Of a stretch of DNA of 50,078 bases, positions 40,039-50,078 are shown piece after piece. The notes beneath the pieces were generated by a model, which worked only from the letters and a program-made list of their open reading frames with translations, made no database searches and was not told the DNA's origin. The position numbers and the translations under genes are program-made. The number at the start of each line of letters is the position of its first letter. Positions within the stretch are counted from its first letter, which is position 1. This DNA is from Candidatus Nitrosotalea bavarica (GTDB lineage Archaea > Thermoproteota > Nitrososphaeria > Nitrososphaerales > Nitrosopumilaceae). The stretch spans positions 1 through 50,078 of the forward strand of contig NZ_FUYK01000012.1 in assembly GCF_900167955.1 (NCBI RefSeq), in the 5' to 3' direction.

Positions 40039-40503
40039 ATGACCAAAAATTCAAGAATGAGGCATTTTTCTAATCATAGGGCACTAAGTTCGATAGTTAC
40101 TGGAATGATACTTCTTGTAACAACTGTTATTCTTGGCTCAGCAGTAGTCATGTGGTCTAGCGGTATCTTTTCAATATCAAAGTCAATTACAACTACACTT
40201 TATGCAACTAATGTAAATGAGTTTTCTGAAAAACTGGTGATAGAAAATGCGTGGTTTGGCAACACTCCATCGAAATTCATTAATGTTACGCTGTATAACG
40301 TTGGCTCAACAGGCATAACTATTACAGATATTAAAATTGAGAATTCTACACATGTGTCAGATATTTCTATTACAAATGGAAACATCCCTGCCCAGAAAAC
40401 AAATTCGACAAAAATACCTTACGGCTGGACAAGTAAAATTCCTCTGAGCATAATAGTAACTACCGCACGAGGTTCAGTCATTACTGATGATGTGTCTCCA
40501 TGA
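40039..40503 (+). CDS. small pilin-like protein with class III signal peptide
   Basis: A 154-residue protein. The N-terminus NHRALSSIVTGMILLVTTVI fits an archaeal class III signal (cleavage near the A-L/S site) followed by the hydrophobic pilin helix. The rest is a beta-rich Thr-rich domain with several N-x-S/T sites (NVT, NST). An ATG at 40057 is an alternative start. It is first of four such proteins in the locus. Confidence 0.8.
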   Translation: MTKNSRMRHFSNHRALSSIVTGMILLVTTVILGSAVVMWSSGIFSISKSITTTLYATNVNEFSEKLVIENAWFGNTPSKFINVTLYNVGSTGITITDIKIENSTHVSDISITNGNIPAQKTNSTKIPYGWTSKIPLSIIVTTARGSVITDDVSP

Positions 40504-40623: not shown

Positions 40624-42069
40624 ATGAGAAAGAGGGATAGAAATGAACCATTTAGATATTTCAATCGCTACAAAAAAGGAGTATCTACAGTAATTAGTGG
40701 AGTGATTTTACTTGTGGGCATTTCATTAATCGGCATTATTGGTGTTTCATGGGCCAAAGACAATCTCAATAACAATGAACAGATCATAGATGATACTTAT
40801 TCTACAAACATCAATAAAATTAAAGAATCCATCACTCCGCAACATGAATGGTACAATTCTGCACAAAAGCAACTTAATGTCACTTTTATTAACACGGGAA
40901 TTGATGGTCTCAATGTTACAGAAATAGAAATTAAAGGAATAAATCCATTGGATTTGCGAATGCCATCAACAGCGGTTCCACCTGGTGCAACCTTTTCTAA
41001 ATTAGTAAATTATAACTGGGCAGGAGATCCACTTGATATTTCCCTAATTACTAACCGTGGCTCAATTTTTACACATCACCTTGGCACACCTGCCGATGGT
41101 CAGTTGATAATCAATAAGATAGCAAGGCAGGCTGATGGCAACTTTACTTATTATGGTGATCTAGGTAATTTTGATATCTCGACTTCTGGTAGCCATAATA
41201 CTGTAACTCTTGATCAAAATGGCAATATGATCCTAACCGGTACGATTCACGATTTTAATGGTTCGGCATGGCCAGAAGGCGGCGATCCTGATTTTGAAAA
41301 AGTGTGTGGCTACTGCCCGTTTGGAGTAATTCCTGGCATTGTTATGCCAAATCTTGGTTCTGACGGAACCCCGGTATACAACAATCAAACCACATCTGCA
41401 TTTAACAATGGATTTGTGAGATATAACCAGTGGTATCATGATACCCCCGGTGTTAATGTGGAAAAACAATTGAATATTACATTGATTGAACAAGGAACCA
41501 ATCCTCAAACATGGAAGTATAGCAACATGTCATTCTTTCCCATAGATAATCAATTGTTTGGCAATAGTGGACAGGATGCAAATGGTAACTGGCATAATTT
41601 TGGATTTACATATGAGATCCACAGTTCGTTTACCTATCAAGGCGGTGAGACTTTTAATTTCTGGGGAGATGACGACTTGTGGGTTTTTGTCAACAAAAAA
41701 CTTGCTCTAGATTTAGGAGGAGTACATGCAGGAGCTGCAGGTACAATAAATTTGGATGCTCAAGCTAGTCAACTTGGGATCACACGAGGAAATGTGTATC
41801 CTTTTGACTTTTTTTATGCAGAACGTCATACAACAAGTTCTGAAATTCAGGTTTCAACATCCATAAAACTTGGAACCCCGGGAACAGGAAACTCGGGAGT
41901 ACTCTTTGTAGATCCTGGAAAATACACCATAGGTGAAGCTCCTACGCCTGGATGGACACTCCAGAGTGTTACATGTGATAACACCTATGCTCAGCCTAAT
42001 GCAACCGAAGTCACGGTAACGGTTCCTAAAGGAGTAACTACGTGCACATTTACAAATTTCCACAATTAA
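40624..42069 (+). CDS. modular pilin-like protein with fibro-slime (PA14-like) domain
   Basis: A 481-residue protein. Residues 17-43 hold a class III signal and pilin helix (KKG followed by VSTVISGVILLVGISLIGI). Residues 160-200 (QLIINKIARQADGNFTYYGD) start like a prealbumin/SpaA-like fold. Residues 205-415 match a fibro-slime domain: GTIHDFNG, FNNGFVRYNQWYHDTPGVN, SFFPIDN, FWGDDDLWVFVNKKLALDLG and FFYAERHT. Residues 425-481 (YTIGEAPTPGWTLQSVTCDN, then CTFTNFHN) resume the prealbumin-like fold. It is probably exported and assembled as a minor, adhesive subunit. Confidence 0.88.
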   Translation: MRKRDRNEPFRYFNRYKKGVSTVISGVILLVGISLIGIIGVSWAKDNLNNNEQIIDDTYSTNINKIKESITPQHEWYNSAQKQLNVTFINTGIDGLNVTEIEIKGINPLDLRMPSTAVPPGATFSKLVNYNWAGDPLDISLITNRGSIFTHHLGTPADGQLIINKIARQADGNFTYYGDLGNFDISTSGSHNTVTLDQNGNMILTGTIHDFNGSAWPEGGDPDFEKVCGYCPFGVIPGIVMPNLGSDGTPVYNNQTTSAFNNGFVRYNQWYHDTPGVNVEKQLNITLIEQGTNPQTWKYSNMSFFPIDNQLFGNSGQDANGNWHNFGFTYEIHSSFTYQGGETFNFWGDDDLWVFVNKKLALDLGGVHAGAAGTINLDAQASQLGITRGNVYPFDFFYAERHTTSSEIQVSTSIKLGTPGTGNSGVLFVDPGKYTIGEAPTPGWTLQSVTCDNTYAQPNATEVTVTVPKGVTTCTFTNFHN

Positions 42070-42234: not shown

Positions 42235-42324
42235 ATGAAGTTGGATGAAATGTCTTTAGATGACCATGTTAATTTCTATGAATTAGATTGCATCACATGT
42301 ACGGATGAATGGCATGAACAATAG
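42235..42324 (+). CDS. possible 29-residue CxxC peptide
   Basis: The frame starts MKLDEMSLDDHVNFYELDCI and ends TCTDEWHEQ, with CITC at 19-22. It overlaps the first codons of the next pilin gene in another frame. It is acidic, unlike random AT-rich sequence, but coding is not shown. Confidence 0.25.
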   Translation: MKLDEMSLDDHVNFYELDCITCTDEWHEQ

Positions 42325-43999
42325 AAGGGGTATAAGCACTGTAGTTGGAGCTGTTTTTTTCGTCATTATTTTCACAACTGCAGTAACTTTTGTTACTTAT
42401 GATATGAATTTACTAAATAATTTTACTAGTGCATTTGTAACAAAAAGTCAATCCGATGCCGATGCAAACCATGAAGAATTTTCAATAACCAAAGTAACAC
42501 TTGCTAACAACAAATTCAATATTACGGTTCAAAATTCTGGAAATATTCCAATAACTATTAACAGACTGTGGATTCAGAACAAAACTGATATCACTTGGGG
42601 TACTTCAAAATATGATATTAACCAAATTGTATACCCTGGAAATTCCCTTTCTGAGATAGGACAAAGCCTTCCACTTTATGCCAAACCAACTCAAGGATAT
42701 GACATTAAACTAGTTACAATGCGTGGAAATGTCAAGGAGTTTTTTGTAAACTCTGCAAGTCAAGCACCGGTATATTTGCAATTATTTGCATTGCCATCTA
42801 CTATCTCAAATAATTTTATCACCACTCTACTTCTTGGAGTAACAAATAACATGACAAATGGTGGCGCCCTCACCAATATTGTGCCAAATATGGCAGTTAG
42901 TAATGTGACAGGTTTTGGTAAAGCTACCCTGATTTCAGGTCCAACTCCATCTTCCTATCCACTTTTGAATGGCGGGGCTGAAACATTTTTTGAGTGGAAT
43001 TATAACATTAATGGTACTAATGGCTACACAGTTAATTTCAAAGCATCACTTCAAAATGGATATCTCTATAACAATGCTTCACAAAATGTCGTACTAAATA
43101 CAGCTACCATGGGAAATGTAGAAGCATATAGCACATATTCTACTAGCCATACTTTGTTATATACGGAAGATACTGTTAATTTCAATACTACCTCTGCAAC
43201 TACGGCTGCAACTTTGCCAACCTCGGTTGGACATACTGGTAAAACTTTCACTATAAGAGATGGTTCTGTTTCTGCTGGGAACCTTGTGAAAATCCTTACT
43301 ACATCTTCACAAACAATTGATGGATATTATTCTCCTTCTGGCTCTATGAATCTTACACATCAAGATCAAATCGTCAAGGTCATCAGTGACGGTTCCAACT
43401 GGAAAACAGTCGGATTCAATCCATCAGAACCAGTAGATTATTTCATGAGAGGGTCAACAACAGCATGGTATGGTAATGCAATACTCCCTACTAATTCAAG
43501 TATAATAATTTCAACACCGTCCACATTGAGAGCAACTCCTTGGGTCGTTCCGCATACAATAACAATTAATGAGATCCAGACAGAAATTTCTAGCCAAGCA
43601 AATCCTACAACTACAACATGTCATATAGGAATTTATCGAGATAATGGTAATGTATATCCTCAAACATTAGTTTCAGGAAGCGATGTTAACACATTTACAA
43701 CTACCACATCAGTTAAAACTTTGACATTTGGAACTCCAATCACACTTACTAAAGGACTCTATTGGCAAGCTTGGACTTGTGGTACGGCAGCAACAACTCA
43801 GCCGACTTTTAGAGCAAATACTGTAGACGTAATCCCGCCAGTGCTAGGTTATGTCAGCACAATGGGTGCAAAAGGATTTGGAACTGCATATACAGTGAAC
43901 TTTACTTATGGTTCATTACCGACTACGTATCCATCTGGTGCTACTATACTAACAGCTACACCCACACCTATGATTTTAGTAGAGATACAAAAAGGATAA
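42305..43999 (+). CDS. large pilin-like protein with phage tail-fibre-like modules
   Basis: A 564-residue protein. Residues 5-30 carry a class III signal with pilin helix (NRRGISTVVGAVFFVIIFTT). Residues 55-270 are Thr/Asn-rich beta domains. Residues 285-372 resemble phage and virus fibre modules (TLPTSVGHTGKTFTIRDGSV, then SSQTIDGYYSPSGSMNL and VISDGSNWKTVG). A second module, about 376-530, reads like tail-protein receptor domains (HIGIYRDNGNVYPQTLVSG, then LTKGLYWQAWTC). Many N-x-S/T sites suggest glycosylation. Probably a surface adhesin of the pilus. Confidence 0.82.
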   Translation: MNGMNNRRGISTVVGAVFFVIIFTTAVTFVTYDMNLLNNFTSAFVTKSQSDADANHEEFSITKVTLANNKFNITVQNSGNIPITINRLWIQNKTDITWGTSKYDINQIVYPGNSLSEIGQSLPLYAKPTQGYDIKLVTMRGNVKEFFVNSASQAPVYLQLFALPSTISNNFITTLLLGVTNNMTNGGALTNIVPNMAVSNVTGFGKATLISGPTPSSYPLLNGGAETFFEWNYNINGTNGYTVNFKASLQNGYLYNNASQNVVLNTATMGNVEAYSTYSTSHTLLYTEDTVNFNTTSATTAATLPTSVGHTGKTFTIRDGSVSAGNLVKILTTSSQTIDGYYSPSGSMNLTHQDQIVKVISDGSNWKTVGFNPSEPVDYFMRGSTTAWYGNAILPTNSSIIISTPSTLRATPWVVPHTITINEIQTEISSQANPTTTTCHIGIYRDNGNVYPQTLVSGSDVNTFTTTTSVKTLTFGTPITLTKGLYWQAWTCGTAATTQPTFRANTVDVIPPVLGYVSTMGAKGFGTAYTVNFTYGSLPTTYPSGATILTATPTPMILVEIQKG

Positions 44000-44123: not shown

Positions 44124-44633
44124 TTACATTTGCTGTTCTATGATCTGACCCTGATCTATGGGTGACATTATCTCGATTTGTTCATGCAACAATTCGTTTT
44201 GACTAGAAAAACCAACTGCGTTCATGTCATTTGATTCATGTACTGATTCAGAAACAATCTTTTCTGTCTGTGACGCATATGACATTTGTGAGAGTCTATA
44301 TGCTGGACATGGTATCTGCATGCTCTTTGACATGATAAAAAATAGTGGAAAGATTTCTTGATATATTAAATTTAAAATTACTGGAATATTTTTTTCGTCT
44401 GGACTTAGTTGCTTTGATATTTCAACCTGGTCTCCATAAAGTGTGGCCAACCCATCTACTGTAATTTTGGCATTTGTAGGATTGGACAAGAGAACAAGCT
44501 TGTATTTTAGTACAACTTCTGAATCTCTGTTTTCTACTTCATCAAGTGACGCCTCTATGTTATATTTTACAAAACCATGTTCATTTTTTAATTTTGAAAA
44601 TGATACTGAATTAATCTCTATTTTTAGATTCAT
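44124..44633 (-). CDS. hypothetical protein, possibly SecB-like
   Basis: A 169-residue soluble protein. Its pattern of alternating beta strands (VSFSKLKNEHGFVKYNIEA, then EVVLKYKLVLLSNPTNAKIT) followed by a helix (NLIYQEIFPLFFIMSKSMQ) recalls SecB-type chaperones. The last 60 residues are Ser/Gln-rich. The likeness is by eye only and other beta-barrel-like folds are possible. It lies alone on the minus strand within the pilus locus. Confidence 0.5.
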   Translation of the reverse strand: MNLKIEINSVSFSKLKNEHGFVKYNIEASLDEVENRDSEVVLKYKLVLLSNPTNAKITVDGLATLYGDQVEISKQLSPDEKNIPVILNLIYQEIFPLFFIMSKSMQIPCPAYRLSQMSYASQTEKIVSESVHESNDMNAVGFSSQNELLHEQIEIMSPIDQGQIIEQQM

Positions 44634-44725: not shown

Positions 44726-45736
44726 GTGAATATCAAAAACCTGCCTGACCAAAGGATGAAAGAAGTCACAAATTCAAAAATCCATGATGAGAATTTCACT
44801 CTGAATATTCATGTCTCTACGTTAAAAAAAAGCACACATGCCCTGTCTAAAAATTATGACATAAAAAAATACCTCGATCCAGAAAAATTCTCATTCTCGC
44901 CTGAAATATCTGAACTTATACCACGGGATACTCCTCCGTACCTTGATAATGGTGAAAAATACGTCGAACGAATTGCAAGAGCTTTATCATTTTTTAAACA
45001 ATGTGCGCTTATTGGACCCAGCGGTACTGGGAAAACCCATATTGTATATCTAGTAGCAGAGCTTGCTGGTCTTCCAATATGGGAGATCAACTGTGGTTTA
45101 CAAACATCAGTTTTTGATCTTTTTGGAAGATATGTTGGGCTGGGAAAAGAAAATTGGATTGATGGATTGATAACATCTTGGAGCCGATATGGGGGAATAT
45201 TGTATCTTGATGAAGCAAATATGATGAAGCAAGATATTGCTACAAGACTTAATCCTATTTTGGATCAACGAGGTCACATGGTTTTAACAGAAAAAGATAA
45301 TGAAATAATTCAACGTCATAAAGATGCTTTTTTAATAATCAGTATGAATCCAGTATCTTCTGAATTTGCAGGCACTAAACCAATAAACGCTGCAATGAGA
45401 AGGAGAATGAGTGTCTGGCTAAACTTTGACTATATGAGCGTGGGTTCAAAGATTGACGAAAAAGAGATAGATCTTTTAATTAGAAAAACCAATGGCTTGA
45501 GCAGACAAGATGCCGAAATAATAGTCAGAGTTGGTGCCGATCTACGAAAGCAATACAAATCAGGTGATCTTCCATATGGTCCCTCTGTAGGCGATCTATT
45601 GAACTGGGCATTACTAATTTCTGATGGTGCTTCACTAAAAGACGCTGCAGAAGAAACAATAATTTCACTCACTAGTGATGATATCGAAGTCCAAGGGATG
45701 GTAAGAAAGATAATTTGTAAAATAGCTGGAATCTGA
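44726..45736 (+). CDS. MoxR-family AAA+ ATPase
   Basis: A 336-residue ATPase with Walker A GPSGTGKT (97-104), Walker B ILYLDEANM (about 158-166), the MoxR-type INCGLQTSVFDLFGRYVG and sensor region IISMNPVSSEFAG, and arginine-rich RRRMSVWLNF. It fits the MoxR/NorQ/CbbQ group that work with VWA proteins to activate or remodel targets. GTG 44726 is used; ATG 44756 is an alternative. The stop overlaps the VWA start by one base. Confidence 0.88.
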   Translation: MNIKNLPDQRMKEVTNSKIHDENFTLNIHVSTLKKSTHALSKNYDIKKYLDPEKFSFSPEISELIPRDTPPYLDNGEKYVERIARALSFFKQCALIGPSGTGKTHIVYLVAELAGLPIWEINCGLQTSVFDLFGRYVGLGKENWIDGLITSWSRYGGILYLDEANMMKQDIATRLNPILDQRGHMVLTEKDNEIIQRHKDAFLIISMNPVSSEFAGTKPINAAMRRRMSVWLNFDYMSVGSKIDEKEIDLLIRKTNGLSRQDAEIIVRVGADLRKQYKSGDLPYGPSVGDLLNWALLISDGASLKDAAEETIISLTSDDIEVQGMVRKIICKIAGI

Positions 45737-47286
45737 TGAAAGACAAAAGACCCAGTTTTTTAGAATTATCTGAAGATATTTTTTACAATTTTTCTCAGAT
45801 AAAACCCGGTAGTCTAAATCTTGTTTTCTCAAAAAGGGCATTGTTTCCAGTTATGAAATATGGCTCTGAACCAGAAATTATTATTCCATTGCCAAGAAAG
45901 CGGGACAACAAATATCTGTTTGAAGGCATGTTATTTGATAGCGATTCAAATGGGAGAAGAAATCTTTGGTGCTTGTTTTTGGCAACAATCTATCACCTTG
46001 CAGCTCATGCCTGCGTTTCAAGATATTCGATATACGAGTCTTGGAAGAAATCCAAGACAGAAGATGTCTGTTTACGTGTAATAGACCATATCGAGGACAT
46101 TTCTGTTGAAAGATACATTTCTCATACTGATTCTGAGATTTGGGAAAATATGAAAAATATTGATCTTAAATTTATGTCTGAGACTCGAAAAAATTATTGT
46201 AATTCTTGGGATGAAGATTTGAAATTTTTTGGATTATCTAATAAAGAAAAAATTACCAAGATACGAACGAGTATGATAAATAAACAAGATGATGTCATAT
46301 TATTTGCAAATTTGCTTTATAAAAATAGGGGACTGTTACTCACAGAAATTCCTCCCTACTATGAAAGACACGATGTGAAACAAATACTGAAAACTGAACA
46401 ACAAAGTCCAGATTTTGAGCCACGTGGGTCATTCCAAGAAAATACGGTACAACTTGATGAACTGTGGTTAGCAGATGAACAATTCAAATCAAAATTGCTT
46501 AGAAGATACAAAAAGAATTTGAAAGATCTTAATTTTGGCACAATTACTATTCCACAAGGAAATTTCCATAATTTTTTGCAAATCAAAGAAAAAGTAGCCC
46601 CATTATTGAGGAGAGTTCGTCAACAGATACTAATGGTAGCAAACCATTTTGATGAACCAAAAATTGATGCGATGGGTTATCTGAACATGCAAATGGCAAT
46701 ACAATCTATTGCATCAGAAGGACAATGTGTTGATGTTTTTGAACGAGATGAAATAAGACGAGTTGAACAAGCATGGGTGATTTTGATAGATAATAGTGCA
46801 AGTATGAATTTGCGGTTTGAACAAATAAAAGAATTTACCGTTTGTATCGCTGAAGCAGCAAATGATCTTACAGAAAAATCTGATGCATGGGCATTATTTA
46901 GTTTTAGTAATGATTTACAAATCTTAAAAGATTTTGAAGAAAAATATGATCATGAAGTGCAAGCACGAATTGGTTCGTTAGAAAATAATGGATTGTCGTT
47001 ATTACCGGATGCGATAGAATTGGCTCGTAGGATGTTATTAGATGACTTACGAGAACGAAAGTATATTTTTATTATTACTGATGGGCATCCGTCAGGTTAT
47101 GAGAGAATAAATCAACATCTTGCTAAAATTGCCAAAAAACTTGATGCGTCGGGAGTGTCTTTAATTGCCATAGGTGTATCCAAACATACCTCAAAGCGTT
47201 TTAGAAATAGTATGCGTGGCTCCTCCAATCTTGGACAACTTGTAGCCAAGTTCATTACTGCCTACAAGACTGTCTCATCAGACTAG
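45736..47286 (+). CDS. VWA-domain protein, MoxR partner (NorD/CbbO-like)
   Basis: A 516-residue protein. A long helical N-terminal part (1-340) leads to a C-terminal VWA domain with an intact MIDAS (LIDNSASMNL, D352, S354 and S356) plus the FIITDGHPSG motif. This order matches NorD/CbbO-type partners of MoxR ATPases. The HLAAHACVSRY stretch (about 87-97) could hold a metal. It shares one base with the MoxR gene, so the two are a translated unit. Confidence 0.86.
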   Translation: MKDKRPSFLELSEDIFYNFSQIKPGSLNLVFSKRALFPVMKYGSEPEIIIPLPRKRDNKYLFEGMLFDSDSNGRRNLWCLFLATIYHLAAHACVSRYSIYESWKKSKTEDVCLRVIDHIEDISVERYISHTDSEIWENMKNIDLKFMSETRKNYCNSWDEDLKFFGLSNKEKITKIRTSMINKQDDVILFANLLYKNRGLLLTEIPPYYERHDVKQILKTEQQSPDFEPRGSFQENTVQLDELWLADEQFKSKLLRRYKKNLKDLNFGTITIPQGNFHNFLQIKEKVAPLLRRVRQQILMVANHFDEPKIDAMGYLNMQMAIQSIASEGQCVDVFERDEIRRVEQAWVILIDNSASMNLRFEQIKEFTVCIAEAANDLTEKSDAWALFSFSNDLQILKDFEEKYDHEVQARIGSLENNGLSLLPDAIELARRMLLDDLRERKYIFIITDGHPSGYERINQHLAKIAKKLDASGVSLIAIGVSKHTSKRFRNSMRGSSNLGQLVAKFITAYKTVSSD

Positions 47287-47343
47287 GTGTAAGTCAAAAT
47301 TACATGCTAGGTGAGATATTCTCCATTGACACACTTGCTAATA

Positions 47344-48039
47344 ATGAATATGTTCCTTAGAACAAAGAACAGAAAAGCAATCAGTGCTGTGCTTACTACA
47401 CTGATCATCTTAGTTGCGTCAGTCGTTCTTGGAACAGGTGTAGTACTATATGGTACAAGCCTATTCCAGACAGGTGCTCAATCATCCGGCGTCACAGCTC
47501 AAGGTGCTCATGTGTGGGTAAATGCCACTTCAGGTATCTCACCAACCTATGTGTGGGGCGCTGCAGAGGTTCGAAATAGTGGAGAAAAGATATTGTCTGT
47601 AGACCAGATTAGTGTACGTGGTAGTCAAATACCATTTGCAAACTGGTATTATGACAGTAATCCTACTAGAGTCACTACTGCAAACTTCCAGTCTCAGCTG
47701 AACTTTACTGGAACTGCAACAACTGCATACATTGCTGCCCATCCTGGTGTTACAAGTGGTATGATGCAAAGTTATGCTGCTGCTGCACCAAATGGATGTG
47801 CTATTAGTTCAACTCAATTTTACATCAATGAGTTTGGTCTATTAAGTACAAATCCAGCTATGTGCTTCACACAAGCATCCGGTCCAATTTCGTTGAAGCC
47901 AGGTGATAGAGTAGTGGTATACTTCCAAGTTCCAACCGGAATTTTTACTACGGTTGATGCTGGCTCACAAAGCAGTGTAGCAATCTACGCTGGCAGTGTA
48001 GGCGCACCACAATCAATCACTGTGGAAAGCAAATCCTAG
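47344..48039 (+). CDS. major pilin/archaellin-like protein
   Basis: From ATG 47344 the protein has 231 residues. The N-terminus NRKAISAVLTTLIILVASVV fits a class III signal peptide cut before or at the A-I/S site, with the hydrophobic assembly helix after it. The body is Ser/Thr/Ala-rich and low in charge, with regular G/A patterns like filament subunits, and it holds a pair of cysteines (CAISST and MCFTQ). The start upstream at 47311 (GTG) would add an odd leader. It directly precedes the assembly ATPase. Confidence 0.85.
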   Translation: MNMFLRTKNRKAISAVLTTLIILVASVVLGTGVVLYGTSLFQTGAQSSGVTAQGAHVWVNATSGISPTYVWGAAEVRNSGEKILSVDQISVRGSQIPFANWYYDSNPTRVTTANFQSQLNFTGTATTAYIAAHPGVTSGMMQSYAAAAPNGCAISSTQFYINEFGLLSTNPAMCFTQASGPISLKPGDRVVVYFQVPTGIFTTVDAGSQSSVAIYAGSVGAPQSITVESKS

Positions 48040-48091: not shown

Positions 48092-49642
48092 ATGAAAGAC
48101 AAATCAAAAAAATCCCAAGAAATTGAAACTTTTTTGGCAAGTCAAATCATGGATGAAGGACAAAGTCAAATTCCCTCGGGTTATGAAATTGTAAAAAAGT
48201 ATCCGTTACTGCCACCCTTTAGCTATGCAAATATCTTGTATAATACAGAAAAGTCTACCTATCTCTATTTTGTGGATGAACTACGCCTAAACAGAGAAGA
48301 TACAATGATCTTTCAAACGCTTTACAAACTCATTGAAGAAAGTCTAGAATCTCCATCCGAATCTGGGGGCAATCAAAATTTTGAAGGCCATCTCAATGCT
48401 ATTCTTAAGGAAAATGAGAAGATGTTTCTGAATCACTCTAGTATGAGTAGTATGGAGAAGGTAAAATATTATTTGAAACGTGACATCGTAGGGTTTGGTC
48501 TAATTGATCCACTGATGCATGACGTAAACATCGAGGACGTAAGCTGTAGTGGAACTGATAAACCAATTTTCATATGGCATAGAAATTATGATAGCATCCC
48601 AACAAATATTCAATATGCATCAAATGAACAATTGAATTCATTTGTTTCTCGAATTGTATTTCGAGCTGGAAAACACATCAGTACTGCATTCCCAATATCT
48701 GATTTGGCGTTACAGGGAAATCATAGAATCTCAGTTTTATATCAGAAGGAAGTTACACCAAAAGGAACAAGCTTTACAATAAGAAAATTCAGGGAAGATC
48801 CTTATACTGTAATTGACTTGATAAAATTTGGAACCATAAGCATATCAATTGCAGCGTATCTATGGATGCTAGTAGAAGCAAAACAGTCTTTTATAATAAT
48901 AGGCTCAACTGGTAGCGGAAAGACTACAATACTTAATGCAATTACAGGTCTTGTTCACCCTGATTACAAAATTTTCTCAGTAGAAGATGTTGCTGAAATT
49001 AATATCAATCATGAAAACTGGTTCACACTAGTTTCAAGAAGTGGGTTTGGCTTGAGTGGTGAAGGTGAAATTGGAATGTATGATTTGATTAAGGCAGGAG
49101 TACGACATAGGCCTGATTATATTGTAGTGGGTGAAATTAGAGGCTCTGAAGCATATGTGATGTTTCAGGCCATGGCTACAGGCCACGGTGGTTTGTGTAC
49201 AATGCATGCAGACGGGCTCGAATCTGCAATAAAAAGACTACAACAAAAGCCAATGGATATACCTCCTGCATATATCTCGCTAATGAACTGTGCAGTAGTC
49301 ATAAAAAGGGTAAAGGAAAATTCTACAGGGCAGAGCAGTAGAAGAGCTATTGCTGTATCGGAAATAATATCTTCCAACTCTTCATATCCAGCTTTTTCGT
49401 GGAACCCAAAAACAGATAATTTTGATGACAATCTAAAAGATAGTAATCTATTTAAAAAAATGGCAGATGCATCAGGTCGTGATCTCAATGAACTACTTGA
49501 AGAACATGAAAAAAGAATCATGATTCTCAAATGGATGCTTGAAAATGATATTCGAAATTATAAAAAAGTGGCCGAAGTAGTTGGGAAATATTATAGAGAC
49601 CCAGAATCATTATTACAAAAAATAGAATTAGGGAATGTCTAA
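48092..49642 (+). CDS. archaeal type IV pilus/archaellum assembly ATPase (GspE/TadA/ArlI-like)
   Basis: A 516-residue secretion ATPase. The N-terminal YPLLPPFSYANILYNT is typical of archaeal members; the C-terminal half has Walker A GSTGSGKT (271-278), the Asp box VEDVAEI, Walker B YIVVGEIRGSEA and the His box GHGGLCTMHADG. It powers filament growth at the cytoplasmic face. The start lies 52 bases after the pilin; the platform gene starts on the base after the stop. Confidence 0.93.
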   Translation: MKDKSKKSQEIETFLASQIMDEGQSQIPSGYEIVKKYPLLPPFSYANILYNTEKSTYLYFVDELRLNREDTMIFQTLYKLIEESLESPSESGGNQNFEGHLNAILKENEKMFLNHSSMSSMEKVKYYLKRDIVGFGLIDPLMHDVNIEDVSCSGTDKPIFIWHRNYDSIPTNIQYASNEQLNSFVSRIVFRAGKHISTAFPISDLALQGNHRISVLYQKEVTPKGTSFTIRKFREDPYTVIDLIKFGTISISIAAYLWMLVEAKQSFIIIGSTGSGKTTILNAITGLVHPDYKIFSVEDVAEININHENWFTLVSRSGFGLSGEGEIGMYDLIKAGVRHRPDYIVVGEIRGSEAYVMFQAMATGHGGLCTMHADGLESAIKRLQQKPMDIPPAYISLMNCAVVIKRVKENSTGQSSRRAIAVSEIISSNSSYPAFSWNPKTDNFDDNLKDSNLFKKMADASGRDLNELLEEHEKRIMILKWMLENDIRNYKKVAEVVGKYYRDPESLLQKIELGNV

Positions 49643-50078
49643 ATGATTTCGCTAAAAAAACTTGATCAGGCAGATTACGAAAAAAAACAAAACAAAAAAA
49701 TCGATAGAGAATTGCCATATTTTATTACTATAATGTCATTACTTGCGTCCAGCGGACTTGGTCCTTATACTATGCTGCAGAAGATAAAAGAGATCAATCT
49801 TTTACCTATTATTCAAGGGGAAATAATTAAGATTATCAAAAGAATTGATTTACTTGGAATAGACCCACTTACTGCATTAGATCAAGCAAAAGACAGACCA
49901 TCTTCAAAAGCATTAGGTGAATTTTTGAGTGGATATGTTTCTGCCATTCAAAGTGGTGGCAATGTGGTTAATTATCTGAAAAGCAAAATGACTGGTTCAT
50001 ACGATAGGCTTGAAAATGCCGAAAAACAATCAGTTGAGAAACTCAGTGGTGTAGTTCACGGGTGGCTTACGATGCAAA
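49643..50078 (+). CDS. type IV pilus platform protein (TadC/ArlJ/GspF-like), partial
   Basis: The frame starts MISLKKLDQADYEKKQNKKI at 49643 and runs off the right edge without a stop (145 codons visible). RELPYFITIMSLLASSGLGP and the RLENAEKQSVEKLSGVV part match the cytoplasmic N-terminal region of GspF/TadC family proteins; the membrane helices lie beyond the window. It works with the ATPase as the membrane platform. Confidence 0.85.
   Translation, partial: MISLKKLDQADYEKKQNKKIDRELPYFITIMSLLASSGLGPYTMLQKIKEINLLPIIQGEIIKIIKRIDLLGIDPLTALDQAKDRPSSKALGEFLSGYVSAIQSGGNVVNYLKSKMTGSYDRLENAEKQSVEKLSGVVHGWLTMQ

What the first reader, a model, noticed from the sequence alone, without database searches (positions are those of the whole stretch)
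42305..43999. Pilin-like protein built with phage tail-fibre-like modules
Residues 285-372 (TLPTSVGHTGKTFTIRDGSV, DGSNWKTVG) and 376-530 (GIYRDNGNVYPQTL, GLYWQAWTC) look like modules common in virus and phage receptor-binding proteins, here attached to a pilin helix. It may be exaptation of a viral adhesin for host or surface attachment, or a decoy.
Basis: partly seen in the sequence, partly recalled or inferred. Interest (0 to 1): 0.7.

Follow-up and report, generated by a model that had tools for sequence, protein, structure and literature searches.

The report
Archaeal pilin with swappable virus-like tips
A soil archaeon makes a surface-hair (pilus) protein whose outer end is built from two domains best known from the tail fibres of viruses, and its close relatives carry quite different outer ends on the same base, which suggests that these cells may borrow and exchange virus-type gripping tips.

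Summary
ORF 42305-43999 (564 aa; Ca. Nitrosotalea) is a pilin-like chassis (residues 1-~268) in a type IV pilus locus, followed by two modules. M1 (275-374) folds like the XD1 domain of phage T4 gp9/gp10 and CBA120 TSP4; M2 (376-564) folds like phage fibre and capsid-fibre jelly-rolls: all four solved structures at Foldseek E<=0.001 are phage proteins. A viral-contig scan gave 211 confirmed M1 relatives and 7 of M2; the M2 scan of genomes gave 3, all thaumarchaeal. Heads do swap: nine positional orthologues carry four unrelated heads (window type 2, head A 5, C 1, D 1). Head A also ends viral fibre-like proteins. Between two genomes head synonymous divergence is half that of the chassis (0.29 v 0.59), between two others four times it (1.66 v 0.38), so heads move by recombination. 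The window head and head A also sit on Sec-exported fibre proteins of the same genus. M1 and M2 are under purifying selection. Best reading: a pilus-displayed adhesin with interchangeable, virus-shared binding heads. Ligand, position in the pilus and direction of transfer are inferred or open; a decoy role was not testable.

The parts
42305..43999 (+). whole ORF, 564 aa: pilin chassis plus two fibre-type modules
   Evidence: purifying selection against the G002 orthologue, dN/dS 0.10-0.21 in every part
42305..42418 (+). N-terminal segment: basic start then hydrophobic stretch (NRRG-ISTVVGAVFFVIIFTTAVTFV), read as a class III prepilin signal (motif recalled, not run through a predictor)
   Evidence: sequence; weak hits that start here: ArlF E 7e-4, BasA E 0.002, PDB 8fk7 archaeal filament E 0.0045
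42419..43108 (+). pilin chassis, residues 39-268, shared with relatives that carry other heads; no cysteine
43127..43426 (+). module M1 (residues 275-374), XD1 / T4 gp9-gp10 type domain
   Evidence: (Z 13.4, rmsd 1.8 over 91 residues to a tailspike; T4 gp9 Z 10.3)
43430..43996 (+). module M2 (residues 376-564), fibre-type jelly-roll; two cysteines, residues 439 and 492
40039..40503 (+). small pilin-like protein, 154 aa (UpsA-like, below the family cut-off)
   Evidence: NF046073 E 5.4e-7, 29.8 bits against a cut-off of 130
40624..42069 (+). second large pilin-like protein: pilin start, then fibro-slime (PA14-type) and SpaA-like domain
   Evidence: TIGR02148 E 1.8e-34; PF07691, PF24514; upstream neighbour in 9 of 9 orthologous places
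44124..44633 (-). conserved neighbour of unknown family, 169 aa
44726..45736 (+). AAA+ ATPase of MoxR/GvpN type
   Evidence: PF07728 E 1e-18; GvpN E 4e-9, below cut-off
45736..47286 (+). vWA-domain protein
   Evidence: PF00092 E 1.1e-15
47311..48039 (+). pilin-like protein, 242 aa
   Evidence: UpsA E 3.2e-6, below cut-off
48092..49642 (+). type IV pilus / archaellum type assembly ATPase
   Evidence: T2SSE E 2.3e-35; NF058587 E 1.6e-108, below cut-off
49643..50077 (+). start of the membrane platform protein (T2SSF / TadC type), cut by the contig end
   Evidence: PF00482 E 2.3e-6

Best explanation
The protein is a modular pilin of one of the type IV pili of ammonia-oxidising archaea. Its N-terminal segment and pilin chassis let the pilus machinery next door build it into the filament (inferred from sequence and synteny). 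The C-terminal 290 residues face outwards: M1, an XD1-type spacer as in phage baseplates and tailspikes, carries M2, a fibre-type jelly-roll that probably binds a glycan or another surface structure. The head is an exchangeable unit. At the same chromosomal slot relatives carry other heads, one of which (head A) also ends viral fibre-like proteins. Heads are replaced by recombination that leaves the chassis and neighbours in place, and the same heads are displayed on separate Sec-exported fibre proteins. So the archaeon taps a pool of binding heads shared with tailed viruses and changes what the pilus sticks to. SHOWN by computation: gene, locus, folds of M1 and M2, relatives in viral tail proteins, four head types in one slot, discordant divergence, purifying selection. 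INFERRED: assembly into the pilus, tip or side position, ligand binding, advantage of switching, virus-to-cell direction.
For: Locus: pilins, ATPase, platform protein, MoxR/GvpN ATPase, vWA and KaiC, a gene set that PMC4858521 (passages seen) associates with archaeal pili. Folds: M2 model pLDDT 75.1, pTM 0.77; all 4 PDB matches at E<=0.001 are phage (cyanophage A4 capsid protein E 3.6e-7, Bxb1 tail tip, Douge central fibre twice), Z 18.7, 15.1, 14.8, 14.8; 73 viral models at E<=0.001. M1: tailspike Solidus gp83 Z 13.4, CBA120 TSP4 12.0, T4 gp9 10.3, T4 gp10 9.7. Sequence: 211 of 450 viral stretches confirmed for M1, 7 of 46 for M2 against 3 of 28 in genomes; M1 lies within 30 aa of the C-terminus in 62 of 80 viral ORFs kept. 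Swapping: 9 orthologues with four heads; dS inversions; identity falls or rises over the head. Shared pool: the window head on Sec-exported fibre proteins of three genomes of the genus, head A on another. Exposure: heads of the nine orthologues have exactly 2 Cys in 9 of 9, chassis none; the M2 pair is in 6 of 6 archaeal and 0 of 9 viral M2.
Against: No experiment and no bound ligand. The pilin half was not modelled with confidence (pLDDT about 30 over most of it), so its fold rests on weak family hits. Curated pilin family cut-offs are not reached. XD1 folds and M2-like jelly-rolls also occur in cellular proteins: CpaA Z 8.3 and StcE Z 6.3 for M1; Cwp84 lectin-like domain Z 12.0 and xylan esterase modules about 10.6 for M2. 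Heads C and D have no viral relative found, and most heads of the wider family are not virus-like (LamG type 11, other sandwich 16 of 39). The tree test is weak: the head alignment rejects the chassis tree (p-AU 0.039) but the chassis alignment does not reject the head tree (p-AU 0.10). XD1 domains are trimers in phages, which does not sit easily with one pilin subunit.
Confidence: 0.7

Rival explanations
1. Decoy or receptor-escape. The pilus is a docking site for viruses; the head varies because viruses select for change, or a virus-type head occupies the receptor that a virus needs and so blocks superinfection or competitors.
For: Pili are virus receptors in archaea and bacteria (PMC7217056 and PMC7911016, abstract starts in a search listing); head divergence among relatives is extreme.
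Against: The same heads ride on non-pilus exported proteins, and most heads in the wider family look like ordinary lectin or sandwich domains. Window M1 and M2 are under purifying, not diversifying, selection against G002 (dN/dS 0.12 and 0.20).
Confidence: 0.12
2. The heads are old cellular surface domains and the viruses borrowed them; the likeness to tail fibres reflects cell-to-virus transfer, so this is no exaptation from a virus.
For: Archaeal M2s share a cysteine pair that the viral ones lack (6 of 6 against 0 of 9) and are found in several genera; similar folds occur in cellular proteins.
Against: Many more confirmed viral than cellular places: M1 211 in viral contigs against 14 of 400 genomes of the order, at least one of them inside a virus-like region; M2 7 against 3. 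The collections differ in size and the patterns slightly, so this is not a rate.
Confidence: 0.13
3. The gene belongs to a provirus, or is an assembly chimera, rather than to the pilus locus.
For: The window is one contig of an incomplete assembly; virus-like regions with M1 exist in other genomes of the order.
Against: The same architecture is in a second assembly at 81% identity with the same neighbours; seven Nitrosotalea genomes share the slot, one on a single 1.8 Mb contig (G035); no viral gene flanks the window ORF.
Confidence: 0.02

Closest known systems
XD1 domain of phage T4 gp9 and gp10 and of CBA120 TSP4 (tailspike branching protein)
   Same: fold of M1 (Z 12.0, 10.3, 9.7); place between an anchor part and a binding part, where PMC8825819 (abstract and passages) describes XD1 as a spacer
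   Different: here on a pilin, followed by a fibre-type jelly-roll; trimer state unknown; sequence identity to the solved forms only 15-19%
Phage fibre jelly-rolls: cyanophage A4 capsid protein 9jwb_Z, Bxb1 tail tip, Douge gp20; PHROG 25864 and 21562
   Same: fold of M2; sequence families reached through relatives: L025 at E 1.3e-9, viral L165 at 1.4e-12 and 5.1e-15
   Different: window M2 itself does not hit these PHROGs; archaeal forms carry a cysteine pair that the viral ones lack
Archaeal type IV pilins (UpsA/B, BasA, ArlF)
   Same: N-terminal segment, locus with ATPase and platform protein
   Different: all curated cut-offs missed; about 290 extra residues
Tip adhesins of type IV pili (PilY1/DUF2341 type in PMC4858521; LamG-bearing relatives found here)
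   Same: large outward binding part in a pilus locus
   Different: phage-type modules; heads interchangeable on one chassis
Receptor-binding domains of contractile injection systems (PMC12923769, passages seen)
   Same: binding domains gained horizontally and swapped at the end of a conserved anchor
   Different: those anchors are phage tails already; here the anchor is a pilin

Membership tests
archaeal type IV pilin | class III prepilin signal with basic residues before a hydrophobic helix | tested here: inconclusive
   present by eye; no signal predictor was run
archaeal type IV pilin | locus with assembly ATPase, platform protein and other pilins | tested here: met
   conserved in relatives
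archaeal pilin families UpsB, BasA, ArlF | curated family cut-off | tested here: not met
   13.5 of 70, 18.2 of 230, 19.7 of 110 bits; so it is filed as pilin-like, not as a member of these families
archaeal type IV pilin | incorporation into a filament | not testable with these tools
   needs proteomics or imaging
XD1 / T4 gp9-gp10 domain | fold | tested here: met
   Z 9.7-13.4, rmsd 1.8-2.5 over 91-98 residues for the Solidus, TSP4, gp9 and gp10 rows; model block pLDDT about 69-96
XD1 / T4 gp9-gp10 domain | trimeric assembly | not testable with these tools
   no multimer prediction on hand
phage fibre jelly-roll (PHROG 25864 type) | profile hit of the window module itself | tested here: not met
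   0 families for residues 373-564; relatives do hit
phage fibre jelly-roll (by fold) | fold | tested here: met
PilY1/DUF2341 tip adhesin | DUF2341 domain | tested here: not met
   no Pfam family for the window protein at E<=1

The most novel reading that the evidence does not exclude
Ammonia-oxidising archaea and tailed viruses share one circulating pool of receptor-binding heads. Viral heads are docked, by homologous recombination in a conserved chassis, onto pili (pilin signal), Sec-exported fibres and Tat-exported proteins, so that the archaeon reads the same cell-surface glycans that viruses evolved to recognise, for instance to find partner microbes, and switches target by exchanging the head.
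Probability: 0.35. Interest if true: 0.88.

Novelty: new variant of a known kind. Interest (0 to 1): 0.72.

Why it matters
The precise functions of the pili of ammonia-oxidising archaea are described as still to be elucidated (PMC7554672, passages seen). A pilin slot with interchangeable, virus-shared heads gives a direct handle: the heads can be made alone and used to ask what these archaea hold on to. It also suggests that cells take up and trade viral recognition domains the way viruses trade them among themselves. Nothing of the kind on pilins came up in the listings, which cover only open-licence PubMed Central papers.

Tried and rejected
Provirus or assembly artefact: rejected on synteny and on independent assemblies. 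Chance compositional likeness: rejected with 2,000 shuffles and the other ORFs of the pilus locus as controls. Single-protein scan of viral contigs: 13 stretches, none a relative; only alignments of modules worked. Heads C and D as viral heads: no phage or viral-contig match; head C relatives lie on a protein with collagen-like repeats and on a second membrane- or exported-looking protein in other genomes. PHROG scans of heads A, C and D themselves gave nothing or only E 0.079. Whole-protein model: the pilin half failed. In alignment A7 MAFFT placed viral M2 rows on M1; it was not used for folding, only its M1 rows were reused. Tree test of recombination: only one direction significant; dS comparison used as well. 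Search for a paper on the cyanophage A4 structure: none. Other folds may match that Foldseek ranked lower; absence from the lists means nothing.

Rows left out: the head census used 41 loci chosen from the longer match lists, not every place; it printed 43 rows, of which two are one gene (L008 and L032), one is the G002 N-terminal fragment and two are headless (267 aa), leaving 39 heads. The PHROG scan of viral M1 ORFs used 57 of the 80 loci kept (23 near-duplicates or very long ones dropped), and those 80 are the best of 211. The viral profile used 42 of the 80.

Full report
WHAT IS THERE. The ORF at 42305-43999 is 564 aa, intact. The window is one whole contig, G000:C6. Its genus is Ca. Nitrosotalea by inference: G035, G002 and G010, which genome search lists as the same genus, match in contig length the records LN890280.1 (Ca. 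Nitrosotalea devanaterra), JARLFW010000021.1 (Ca. Nitrosotalea sp.) and JAJPGU010000014.1 (Thaumarchaeota archaeon). Nearby lie pilin-like proteins, a MoxR/GvpN-type ATPase, a vWA protein, the assembly ATPase and the start of the platform protein, with KaiC and TrmB-type genes upstream. PMC4858521 (abstract and passages) names KaiC, vWA and MoxR/GvpN proteins as partners of archaeal pili.

PILIN HALF. Residues 1-~268 begin with NRRG and a hydrophobic stretch. Family hits are weak: ArlF E 7e-4, BasA 0.002, UpsB 0.055, all far below cut-offs; an archaeal filament protein in the PDB at E 0.0045. The model of this half failed. The claim that it is a pilin thus rests on locus, start segment and those weak hits together.

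MODULE M1. Residues 275-374 are modelled at block pLDDT about 69-96 over 271-370. Closest solved structures: Acinetobacter phage Solidus tailspike, Z 13.4, rmsd 1.8 over 91 residues; CBA120 TSP4 residues 81-180, Z 12.0; Klebsiella phage KP1 baseplate, 11.6; T4 gp9, 10.3; Pa223 capsid spike, 10.1; T4 gp10, 9.7. The cellular proteins in entries 6o38 (CpaA complex, Z 8.3) and 4dny (StcE, 6.3) follow. PMC8825819 (abstract and passages) calls this domain XD1, lists T4 gp9, gp10, CpaA and StcE as its relatives, and says it appears to serve as a spacer between interacting modules. Viral contigs: 450 stretches matched, 211 confirmed, 80 kept; the domain ends within 30 aa of the C-terminus in 62 of those 80 ORFs and starts within 60 aa of the N-terminus in 15. 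Among PHROG hits of 57 of these ORFs (107 families, first 25 shown), those with a name are tail fibre, tail spike, tail, collagen-like minor tail and virion structural proteins; the most frequent one (13 of 57) has no name. With a close relative as query, 37 phage records match, among them minor tail proteins of Microbacterium and Arthrobacter phages, a tail fibre, and a baseplate protein of Haloarcula tailed virus 3; many of these E-values lie between 1e-3 and 1.

MODULE M2. Residues 376-564: pLDDT 75.1, pTM 0.77 with 11 sequences. Foldseek in the PDB: 4 chains at E<=0.001, all phage: cyanophage A4 capsid protein (3.6e-7, TM 0.68), Bxb1 tail tip, Douge central fibre twice. On the DALI-like scale 18.7, 15.1, 14.8, 14.8; then phi812 baseplate about 12-13, the Cwp84 lectin-like domain 12.0, esterases about 10-11. 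Viral models: 73 at E<=0.001. By sequence: Zucker gp26, annotated glycoside hydrolase, E 2e-7; Phrank15 gp31 E 10, a weak match. Viral contigs 7 of 46 stretches, in short proteins and at the ends of longer spike- or fibre-like proteins (the words spike and fibre are my reading apart from a pectate-lyase hit in L169, and a tail-protein PHROG hit for L165); one of these appears to carry an M1-like stretch before M2, as in the window (L168, by eye). Genomes: 3 of 28, all thaumarchaeal (the patterns there were slightly longer). In 400 genomes of the order, 7, the window's own included, have the window head or part of it.

HEADS SWAP. Of 101 genomes (own included) 40 have the protein or part of it. 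Nine orthologues lie downstream of a fibro-slime pilin: the window and G002 share the head, with G002 split into two ORFs by a frameshift; G035, G001, G011, G025 and G004 carry head A; G041 head C; G022 head D. Chassis identity to the window is 54-89%. By BLAST these four head types do not match one another at E<=1e-3. Among the five with head A, G035 and G011 agree 84.7% in the chassis but 97.8% in the head; G004 and G025 95.8% and 50.4%. Synonymous divergence shows that this is not selection alone: 0.59 in the chassis against 0.29 in the head, and 0.38 against 1.66 (near saturation at the high end). DNA identity changes over the head and is back to chassis-like levels in the gene downstream. 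Tree tests agree in one direction only: the head data reject the chassis tree, p-AU 0.039; the reverse is 0.10. In the wider family 39 heads fall in seven groups that do not match one another: a sandwich type 16, LamG type 11, A 5, another 4, and one each of C, D and the window's (the sandwich label is my reading, LamG is from Pfam on two members). Two members have no head.

HEADS ARE SHARED. Head A relatives were found in 8 viral contigs (of 19 stretches), in all 8 within 30 aa of the C-terminus, and in a 642 kb phage record at 36.8%, E 8e-15. In the same genus another chassis, with a Sec-type start (read by eye) and the words AGIPKKAIS or AGIPKRAIS, carries M1-M2 in G035, G014 and G010 and head A in a second protein of G014. 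Head A also ends larger proteins in G015 and G106 (Pfam gave nothing). M1 was found in 14 of 400 genomes of the order; in G091 it ends four proteins with a Tat-like RRGFLKK or RRDFIKK start, beside a TatA-family gene. G154 has M1 in a region with a major-head-protein hit at E 7e-11, so a virus-like region.

EXPOSURE AND SELECTION. The nine orthologous heads each have two cysteines and the chassis none (for G002 counted on its separate ORFs). The M2 pair is in 6 of 6 archaeal M2 and in 0 of 9 viral or phage M2; L166 has one of the two. Head A heads on pilins also have two each, but in one of five at other positions. Against G002 dN/dS is 0.10 and 0.21 in the chassis parts, 0.12 in M1 and 0.20 in M2, so the heads are kept for a function.

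MECHANISM. Pilin chassis into the filament; M1 as spacer; M2 as binding head. The jelly-roll resembles carbohydrate-binding and fibre domains, so a glycan is the likeliest ligand (inference). Whether the protein sits at the tip or along the pilus is open. Exchange by recombination in conserved flanks changes the ligand. A decoy or virus-escape role cannot be excluded.

NOVELTY. Searches of open papers listed no pilin with tail-fibre modules; I read passages of PMC4858521, PMC12923769, PMC6563490, PMC7554672 and PMC8825819 only. PMC12923769 reports horizontal gain of receptor-binding domains in contractile injection systems, the nearest parallel. I rate it a new variant of a known kind, pilus adhesins.

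Noticed in passing
window 40624-42069: Upstream pilin-like protein with a fibro-slime (PA14-type) and a SpaA-like domain, itself a likely adhesin; DNA identity between some relatives is low over part of the stretch upstream of the finding that covers it.
   Followed up: partly
L248 (G091:C103): Four M1-ending ORFs of 509-666 aa with a Tat-like RRGFLKK or RRDFIKK start on one 12 kb stretch, beside a TatA-family gene; G099 and G112 show 12 and 10 M1 matches.
   Followed up: partly
L074 11613-13235, L075 6653-8539, L251 1617-3182: Sec-type fibre proteins with the words AGIPKKAIS or AGLVKRAIS, near a racemase-like and a CdvB-like gene (both named by eye) in three genomes, with different heads.
   Followed up: partly
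L252 and L073 (G154:C6): Virus-like region in an archaeal assembly: major-head-protein hit and an M1-bearing ORF; host assignment not tested.
   Followed up: no
L223 1-1209 (G011:C46): Exported-looking protein with a head C relative and a collagen-like repeat.
   Followed up: no
L027 1567-3266 and G020:C4: Pilins of this family split into two ORFs by a frameshift; assembly error or real not tested.
   Followed up: no
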